The position numbers were made by a program, and so were the translations under genes. Of a DNA stretch of 64,000 nucleotides, positions 1,774-32,700 are shown in pieces. Source of the DNA: Bactericera cockerelli. Taxonomy: Eukaryota; Arthropoda; Insecta; Hemiptera; Triozidae. Each line of letters opens with the position of its first letter. Position 1 is the first letter of the stretch. The notes beneath the pieces are model-generated. The model did no database searches. It had not been told where the DNA came from and worked only from the letters and a program-made list of their open reading frames with translations. The stretch is from assembly GCA_024516035.1 (NCBI GenBank), contig CM044963.1, positions 17,183,587 through 17,247,586 on the forward strand, given 5' to 3'.

Positions 1774-1906
1774 CTACATGGTCTACATGGATGAGAACGG
1801 AGACGCGGAGGGCAACTACTCCCTGGTCGGGCGTCAGATGGGCCCCCGAGGCTACGGACTGTACCCGTGGGGCGCCTTCACAAGGAACAGCAACATGAGT
1901 CTTCCG
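1774..1906 (+). CDS. Gyc76C: Cyclase exon A: end of ligand-binding domain
   Basis: The acceptor is CCCCCAG and the donor CCG|GTAATA. It encodes [15 protein letters not shown] and YGLYPWGAF, a conserved stretch near the end of the receptor extracellular domain. It starts one base into a codon and ends in phase 0. The protein N-terminus and signal peptide are left of the window. The exon end is copied downstream at least three times (see 1895-2300). Confidence 0.9.
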
Positions 1907-4900
1907 GTAATAGTTTGGCTACTTTATTTGAGTGGGGCGTTCTTCTTTTTGTAACTACGAAGTGATGCTTTTGGGGGACATGAGTTTTTTTGTTTTACAA
2001 ATTAACGAGGTTAATCCATGTCTTCCGGTAGGACCTAATTTCTTTGAGTGGGGCGTTCTTTTTTTGTAACCACGAAGTGATGCTTTTCGGGGACATGATT
2101 TTTTTTTTTTTAAACTAACTAACGAGTTAATCGATGTCTTCCGGTAGGAACTAATTTTTTTGAGTGGGGCGTTCTTCCTTTTATAACCACGAAGTTAAGC
2201 TTTTGGGGGACTTGAAAGAAGAATGTAAACTCTTACCGGGTGGGTAAGAGATTACATACTTTTTTTGAGTGGGCGATCTTCTTTTTGTGTCCACGAATTG
2301 ATGTTTTTGGGGGATAAATATATTGAAAAAATACTATAAATAAAGTTGAACATAACTAATTGAAGCCAGCCTATATGGCGTAACGGGATCCCAATGCATT
2401 TAGTCTAGAGCTTCACTTGAGGAACTCCAACCAGTTTTTAATAATAATCACGTTACCAAAGTCCACCCATTTTTTGCATAATATTATTGGAAATGCGGCT
2501 TTTGATTTCAGACACTGAGTCTGACGCAGGAGACCTTAGGTAATCACGTTACCTAAGGTCCACCCATTTTTTGCATAATATTATTGGAAATGCGGCTTTT
2601 GATTTCAGACACTGAGTCTGACGCACGAGATAGACTGGATCAGTGGTCAGCCGCCCCTAGCAGAGCCGCCCTGCGGATTCCGAGGAGAAAAATGCTTCTG
2701 TAAGTACCTGAGCCTCCTTCCACTCTCACTCTCACAATCCTCAAAAAAGATTATTATTATTATTATTATATAATTCTTTATTAGATACAAAAGGACATTA
2801 TGTACATATAAATAATAATTTTAACAGTGAAAAATCAAAAAACAATATATACAATAAAAATGAAAAAGAATAGAAAATATTTGAAAACATAAATGTCCTA
2901 ACTAAAGGGCGGGGTTATTGCCTATGGCAATCTCTTCCACCCAACCCTTTTTTAAAAAGTTGTGATATCACTTTCGCGATATCACAACTACTCAAACTCG
3001 CTTTACTAAATTTACGCTGAAGCCGGGACTTGAACCACCGACCTCCAGGTTACAAGTCCGCCGCCTTATCGATCAAGCTACTGAGGTCGGTGATTGGTCA
3101 CAATAGAGTAGAATCACAGGACTTTTTACAATTTACTATACAATATCTTGTCTTGTTTATAACTCAGCCACTGGTCGCTGCTCAAACCCATGAATTTTCC
3201 CTCATTAATTTGAGTTTGTGACCACATATAAAAAGACTCTGAGGGTTAGGTGGTAGAAAATGCTTTGAGCATTAACCTCGGCTGGTGGTTACCTTATTAT
3301 GTTTGACCATGCAGTTGAAAGCGACGTTAAACCAAAAAAAGTAAGTACGTCTAGTGCGCTACTTCACTCGGCCATTTCAAATCGACCTACTTTAGATACC
3401 ATAATAATAATAGTGCCTTCTTTTTACAACCCGATTAGGACTATTATCTATTATATCCCATTATTCCAGCAGTAAGCCAAGACGGATTATTATGTGTTGA
3501 AAATCCCAAAAAGGAGGATAACAAGAGAGAGAGAAAAGAAAGTTAAATCAAGTGAGAAAAAAAGCACTATCCCACAAAACAAGGAAATCACTGATTTTCT
3601 TAGTGCGGGTAGTTTAGGACATGTTATGTCAGTTAAATAATTTATCTATTTAGTATTTAAGTTAAATCTTACGTACTTATTGTAAAAATGTATTTTCAAT
3701 GTATTGTCATCATCAATAAAATCAACTCAAAATCAAATCCCGGCTGGGTTTCGAACCCGCGACCTCTGGTACCGCCTTTATCATTAAGCTACCGGAAAGG
3801 TTTGTTTCAAAAATCAAACAAGGAAAAATGTTACAAATTGTGTACCGCATGTTTTAAAAAATCAAACAAGGAAAATGTTACAAATTGTGTACCGCATACT
3901 TAACATAAATATGTATACAGGGGAAAGAGTAGGAAGCTGTAATAAACATTTAAGACGATTTATTTACCTCCCTTCTTTCTCTGCAAATTTTTACAATAAA
4001 TTATTCGAGCTTTTCACAAGAATAACAAGAGCAGAAAATGCTGCAAAGGTAATTAAAAATCATTTTGGAAATGAAATCTCTTCAAAATAAAATCCTCCCT
4101 ACCCCCCACTTCGAGATAAATTCCCTCACTTCCATCGAAAGTCCCCCCACCCCGTTCCGCCCACCCCCAAAACGTGGATGTCTTATTAAAGAACGGAAAA
4201 AAGTGTTTTTCTAATACATTTATGAATAATGTTCTACTCAAAAAAAAAAAAATAATAATAATAATAAAGTAGGTACTCTAACAAAAGGTTTTTGGTGGGT
4301 AATGTAATCATTTATTAATATTTACCTTCTTAATATTATTTTATTATGAGATTAAATAAGCAGTGATGAGGATAGGATTTTTCTATGAAGACTTTTCTTA
4401 TGACTGCTAAAAGTCTAAAAGACAAGAACAATTTTCGTCATTGAAGTAAAGCAACGTCCAGCGTGGCTAGGACTTGGATGGGTGACCATTTAATTTGGAA
4501 CGCTCGTGATACTGGCTATTACCGGCCCCACTCAGACAGGGTGAGGTTAATTTGAGTAGCTGGTGTGTGAGTTTCCAGCGAATGAAGCGTAAAACCCTCG
4601 TCGTGATATATTATGATTATGCATTGGTGGAATCTGAGGAGAAACTTGCAACTTCACAAATACCAAAACTTATTAACGATCGAAGAAGTAATGAACCAGA
4701 GATAAAATTGCATGTCATGATAATACTTTTCAAGTTTGAAACGCGAAACTCTAGTTTTCCGGCATTTTCACAACGTCAAAATATCTTCTTTGTAAACTTA
4801 AAAAGATTTCTTCTTTAAAACTGTTGTAAAAGAGCAGCACAGACACCAAGAAATTGAGGACAAAGAAACCTCAAACAGCAACTCGAGTAAATAAGTCCCC

Positions 4901-32380: not shown

Positions 32381-32700
32381 TTGGGGTGTGATGTGACGAG
32401 GGTGCCCTTACTATCGGAGACGCCCATGTGATTGGGGTGTGATGTGACGCGGGTGCCCTTGCTGTCGGAGACGCCCATGTGATTGGGGTGTGATGTGACG
32501 CGGGTGCCCTTGCTATCGGAGACGCCCATGTGATTGGGGTGTGATGTGACGCGGGTGCCCTTGCTGTCGGAGACGCCCATATGATTGGGGTGTGATGTGA
32601 CGCGGGTGCCCTTGCTGTCGGAGACGCCCATGTGATTGGGGTGTGATGTGACGCGGGTGCCCGTTCTATCGGAGAAGCCTTGAGACGTCCATGTGATTGT
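32339..32700. repeat. 51-bp minisatellite over cyclase stop codon, 7 copies
   Basis: Unit starts at 32339, 32390, 32441, 32492, 32543, 32594 and 32645. Each has GATGTGACGCGGGTGCCCTT and ACGCCCATGTGATTGGGG. The unit is exactly 17 codons, in frame, and each repeats the TGA stop. The last unit is degenerate. Confidence 0.95.

What the first reader, a model, noticed from the sequence alone, without database searches (positions are those of the whole stretch)
1774..32700. A gene whose exon edges keep turning into minisatellites
In the receptor cyclase gene at least eight splice junctions have been copied with their splice site: donors of exons A, F, G, J and K (K array begins just inside the donor), acceptors of exons B, I and M, plus the stop codon in exon O. 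Units differ in length (38, 46, 51, 53, 69/92, 88, 97, about 118 bp) and sequence, so these are independent events at different junctions. The frame-keeping copy is always the outermost: first donor, last acceptor. Akirin and RAB5IF in the same window show none. This fits a model in which tandem duplication across a splice site is tolerated because the spare copies become intron, so introns grow from exon edges. I know of no description of this as a gene-wide pattern.
Basis: partly seen in the sequence, partly recalled or inferred. Interest (0 to 1): 0.92.

Follow-up and report, generated by a model that had tools for sequence, protein, structure and literature searches.

The report
Exon edges copied into intron minisatellites
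In the genome of an insect that is most likely a psyllid, short stretches that straddle exon ends, splice site included, have been copied over and over in tandem in genes of three unrelated families; the spare copies are likely spliced out as intron, so introns would lengthen from the exon edge without harming the protein.

Summary
The gene is a 15-exon Gyc32E-type receptor guanylate cyclase; the closest named relative is from the psyllid Diaphorina citri. Tandem copies cross the donors of A (weakly), F, G and J, the acceptors of B and M, and the stop codon. At I the acceptor AG is copied with about 2 exon bases. K is not copied: its array starts 6 bp inside the donor. The gene is not alone: 22 of 92 called edges in myosin loci of the same genome have copies crossing the splice site (17 after hand checks), with up to 48 copies; other cyclase loci gave 0 of 12 and kinesin 0 of 26, plus one uncalled kinesin donor. 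By coverage this is no more than neighbouring noncoding DNA (19%). By founding events there is about a three-fold excess: 14-15 of 104 non-redundant edges against 4.9 expected, P 1e-4 to 4e-4, all in myosin genes. Near-identical locus pairs show 6 versus 5 copies of one array, and presence versus absence of another. The structure is known from amphioxus as 'mirages', so the claim of no earlier description fails. New are the insect lineage and the density. Use of the exon-proximal copy is inferred; no transcript of this species was available.

The parts
1774..32380 (+). receptor guanylate cyclase (Gyc32E-type), exons A-O; upstream exons lie outside the window
   Evidence: open frame over 15 exons; 80% identity to P0001, 74% to D. 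citri P0002
1896..2314 (+). exon A donor and 2 downstream copies (116-121 bp spacing), plus a degraded fourth
2461..2630 (+). exon B acceptor: 97-bp unit, 2 copies, real acceptor is the last
16112..16627 (+). exon F donor: 46-bp unit (29 exon + 17 intron bases), 11 copies with GACG|GTAAGG
17476..18122 (+). exon G donor: last 34 exon bases + GTGAG copied at 17829, shorter copy at 18000, with SINE-like pieces between
20159..20809 (+). exon I acceptor: 38-bp array, about 17 repeats, ending at the acceptor AG; only about 2 exon bases copied
23112..23200 (+). exon J donor: 27 exon + 9 intron bases copied once, 53 bp downstream
24435..25092 (+). 88-bp array in intron K, starting 6 bp inside the donor; related unit precedes the L acceptor; no exon copied
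25919..26843 (+). exon M acceptor: 69/92-bp units (about 30 intron bases + up to about 60 exon bases), 12 CCAG|GGCC sites, last one is the exon
32339..32719 (+). exon O stop codon: 51-bp unit, 7 copies; first copy holds the frame's stop, the rest are 3' UTR

Best explanation
Short tandem duplications that straddle a splice site (or the stop codon) have happened repeatedly in this genome, and they likely persist because splicing would still pick the copy attached to the exon, leaving every other copy to become harmless intron or 3' UTR. Shown: the copies, their registers, the intact splice sites in most spare copies, the occurrence in several myosin genes and one kinesin exon besides the cyclase, and copy-number and presence/absence differences between near-identical loci. 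Inferred: exon definition picks the exon-proximal copy, because the spare sites are mostly identical to it and the units copied carry one kind of site, so no extra exon is defined. Arrays then grow, shrink and homogenise as ordinary intronic minisatellites. At the event level exon edges are hit about three times more often than other noncoding DNA in the loci sampled; the cause of that excess is not known.
For: Junction copies in the window gene. In 34 pieces of the same genome (65 of 77 myosin matches, 8 of 94 cyclase matches), 22 of 104 called edges carry crossing copies, all in myosin loci; of the 22, 3 are alternative-exon duplicates, one call is ambiguous (L044) and one is on a miscalled acceptor in a duplicate locus (L048), leaving 17. 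Of 211 crossing copies 205 lie on the intron side; the 6 on the exon side are one in the miscalled L048 array and 5 in the alternative-exon stretches L053 and L054. Before/after pair: L047 has one acceptor, L045 three copies of a 38-bp unit (26 intron + 12 exon bases) at the same place. L046 and L048 share a 94-bp donor array with 6 versus 5 copies. Of 159 spare sites in the 14 hand-checked non-redundant arrays, 156 keep GT or AG and 130 the same 9-mer as the exon-proximal site, so site strength alone cannot explain the choice. Two related proteins, one from D. citri, run through these junctions with no repeat insert. Units are locus-specific within 359 kb. Events: 15 (14 after hand check) of 104 non-redundant edges against 4.94 expected, P 1.2e-4 (4.2e-4).
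Against: No RNA of this species was seen, so which copy is spliced is untested. By coverage the edges are not enriched: 7 of 30 edges against 23.7% of noncoding positions, circular-shift P 0.36 to 0.86 over five settings; 22 of 104 against 19.0%. For the window gene alone the event test is weak: 5 of 30 against 2.26, P 0.07. The genes differ: 0 of 12 edges in other cyclase loci and 0 of 26 called kinesin edges, though one uncalled kinesin donor is duplicated (L059); the event excess rests on myosin genes, and edges of one gene may not be independent. The idea that acceptor arrays should be rarer than donor arrays is not established: donors 11 of 66, acceptors 3 of 38, P 0.25. Locus pairs may be duplicates rather than alleles.
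Confidence: 0.75

Rival explanations
1. Chance: this genome is full of minisatellites, and with about a fifth of noncoding DNA inside one in the loci sampled, some arrays happen to lie over exon edges.
For: Equal coverage of edges and noncoding DNA; the cyclase gene region is repeat-rich, 23.7% of noncoding positions against 6.6% in 33-64 kb; kinesin and other cyclase loci show few or none.
Against: Coverage counts array growth, not events; by events 14-15 of 104 edges against 4.94 expected; edge arrays more often have 5 or more copies, 13 of 20 against 16 of 62, P 0.0026.
Confidence: 0.2
2. Preferential nucleation: exon edges are mutational hot spots for tandem duplication, for example because GC-rich exons next to AT-rich introns, or transcription and splicing, favour slippage or template switching there.
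For: Event excess and higher copy number at edges; arrays elsewhere are also somewhat richer in GC (38% against 36% of unique noncoding DNA; exons 53%).
Against: The GC difference of non-edge arrays is small; the exon-side copy should decay more slowly, so old edge duplications stay detectable longer, which could give part of the excess (inference).
Confidence: 0.25
3. Function: the spare donors and acceptors are kept to regulate or diversify splicing, as in human IFI6.
For: 156 of 159 spare sites are intact.
Against: Arrays look young or homogenised, so intact sites are expected; L049 has two of four spare donors changed from GT; many units are not multiples of 3; one of two near-identical loci can lack the array.
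Confidence: 0.05
4. Assembly artefact.
For: Tandem arrays are hard to assemble; the assembly holds several near-identical duplicate loci.
Against: Copies differ by point changes and indels; two separately assembled near-identical loci both carry the 94-bp donor array; the pattern recurs in many loci.
Confidence: 0.03

Closest known systems
Amphioxus 'mirages' (minisatellite-like tandem duplications of exon/intron boundaries; globins BflGb6 and BflGb9, Adh3, troponin C, PGBD5)
   Same: units cross the boundary and many carry AG or GT sites; both 5' and 3' boundaries affected; copy number varies; interior copies homogenised, terminal copies not; normal protein kept
   Different: cephalochordate; described gene by gene in the passages seen. 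Here an insect, seven junctions plus a stop codon in one gene, and about 1 in 7 edges over the non-redundant loci of three families (1 in 5 in myosin genes)
Human IFI6 (6-16) donor minisatellite
   Same: a minisatellite supplies repeated splice donors
   Different: there downstream repeats are used as donors; here use of spare copies is untested
Internal tandem repeats at exon-intron boundaries of human duplicated genes (PMC2812944)
   Same: minisatellite expansion at exon edges changes intron extent
   Different: those were found because they modify transcripts and can make new introns; here existing introns lengthen
[quoted passage not shown] PMC4974935)
   Same: tandem duplication in which duplicated exon sequence ends up as intron
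   Different: a new intron inside an exon versus extension of an existing intron from its edge

Membership tests
[quoted passage not shown]
   window A, B, F, G, J, M; 14 hand-checked non-redundant edges in myosin loci
mirage minisatellites | both 5' and 3' boundaries can be affected | tested here: met
   donors A, F, G, J and acceptors B, M; L020 exon has both edges as arrays
mirage minisatellites | length instability between alleles | tested here: inconclusive
   6 versus 5 copies, and presence versus absence, between near-identical loci, but alleles and recent duplicates cannot be told apart
mirage minisatellites | interior copies homogenised, boundary copies excluded | tested here: met
   M interior copies share changes absent from the exon copy and from the first copy; judged by eye on one array, no tree built
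mirage minisatellites | normal splicing not disturbed | not testable with these tools
   no transcripts of this species; two related proteins run through without inserts
intron gain by tandem duplication (Rogers) | new intron created inside an exon from duplicated AGGT exonic segment | tested here: not met
   arrays extend introns already flanking the exon; the native donor or acceptor is copied with its intron bases. The age of the introns was not tested
IFI6-type multiple-donor minisatellite | spare repeats used as donors in mRNA | not testable with these tools
   no RNA data

The most novel reading that the evidence does not exclude
In this psyllid-like genome exon edges are nucleation sites for minisatellites: junction-spanning tandem duplications arise several times more often there than in other noncoding DNA, expand to high copy number, and are a standing, still segregating source of intron growth across the whole genome.
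Probability: 0.3. Interest if true: 0.78.

Novelty: new member of a known kind. Interest (0 to 1): 0.6.

Why it matters
In the papers seen, mirages are reported from a handful of amphioxus genes. A genome in which about one sampled exon edge in seven carries one, with apparent before/after locus pairs, would let intron growth, tolerance of redundant splice sites and exon definition be measured directly. For annotation, such arrays can also mislead splice-site prediction.

Tried and rejected
Position-coverage enrichment tests: no excess; kept and reported. A strict ungapped 30-bp test gave only 4 of 30 edges against 4.8 expected. Donor-versus-acceptor asymmetry: not significant. A first count of intact spare sites with a 4-bp tolerance (which ended in a script error after printing) was too loose and was replaced by an in-register count. 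Genome-wide copy search of the F unit by the genome search did not complete; replaced by a search of the 359,489 bases in hand, overlaps included. In L048 the called acceptor with a 41-bp array is probably not the true one (the frame continues from an acceptor about 60 bp on, judged), so that array is intronic; L048 was already dropped as a duplicate locus. L053 (2 edges) and L054 (1) were set aside as alternative-exon duplicates; L044 as an ambiguous donor. L052, with 10 acceptor copies, counts but is missed by the event rule. One of each duplicated pair was dropped before the non-redundant counts (L002, L004, L007, L029, L041, L042, L047, L048), which drops two genuine-looking arrays in L029 and L048. 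Matches given to the script: 65 of 77 myosin, 8 of 94 cyclase used (10 typed), 23 of 85 kinesin. On checking, the hits outside the window gene proved to be all in myosin loci, so I lowered the novel case from 0.35 to 0.30 and the interest from 0.62 to 0.60. Papers: PMC3087553 section 16 and passages; PMC4974935, PMC2812944, PMC4526556 and PMC3902484 passages only; PMC4039745 (C. elegans minisatellites and splicing) seen in a listing only; Canestro 2002 (not held) and Turri 1995 not seen, known through the reference lists and text of those papers. Myosin and kinesin motif recognition used to hand-check edges is recalled.

Full report
What the gene is. Fifteen exons joined by GT-AG introns read as one open frame to the stop. 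The best protein relatives are P0001 (80% identity over the full query, from an unnamed 4,767-base contig) and P0002 from Diaphorina citri (74%), then receptor cyclases of many arthropods, several of them hemipteran; the best solved relatives are natriuretic peptide receptor 1. The window is therefore most likely from a psyllid or a close relative; no call names the species. It lies at C9:17183587-17247586 of a 565-Mb assembly. Exon N continues to 27991, as the relatives show.

Noticed in passing
G000 pairs such as C1:54.04/53.94 Mb, C3:29.00/29.21 Mb, C6:25.50/26.39 Mb, C9:10.90/11.51 Mb: Several loci occur twice with exon identity 95.9-100%, at varying distance and orientation: retained haplotypes or recent duplicates.
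   Followed up: partly
window 1-990: 30-bp satellite with CCTAGG, about 33 copies, just upstream of the cyclase exons.
   Followed up: no
window 1480-1773: SINE-like element with a (TATTG)n tail ending about 8 bp before the exon A acceptor; similar frames near 21100 and 52600.
   Followed up: no
window 28685-30876: Reverse-transcriptase-type retroelement frames inside intron N.
   Followed up: no
window about 6380-7430: Large inverted-repeat element (about 500-bp arms, judged by eye) in intron B.
   Followed up: no
L059 about 2716-3416 (reverse strand): Kinesin exon end copied downstream, and the intronic half of that unit copied again on its own.
   Followed up: partly
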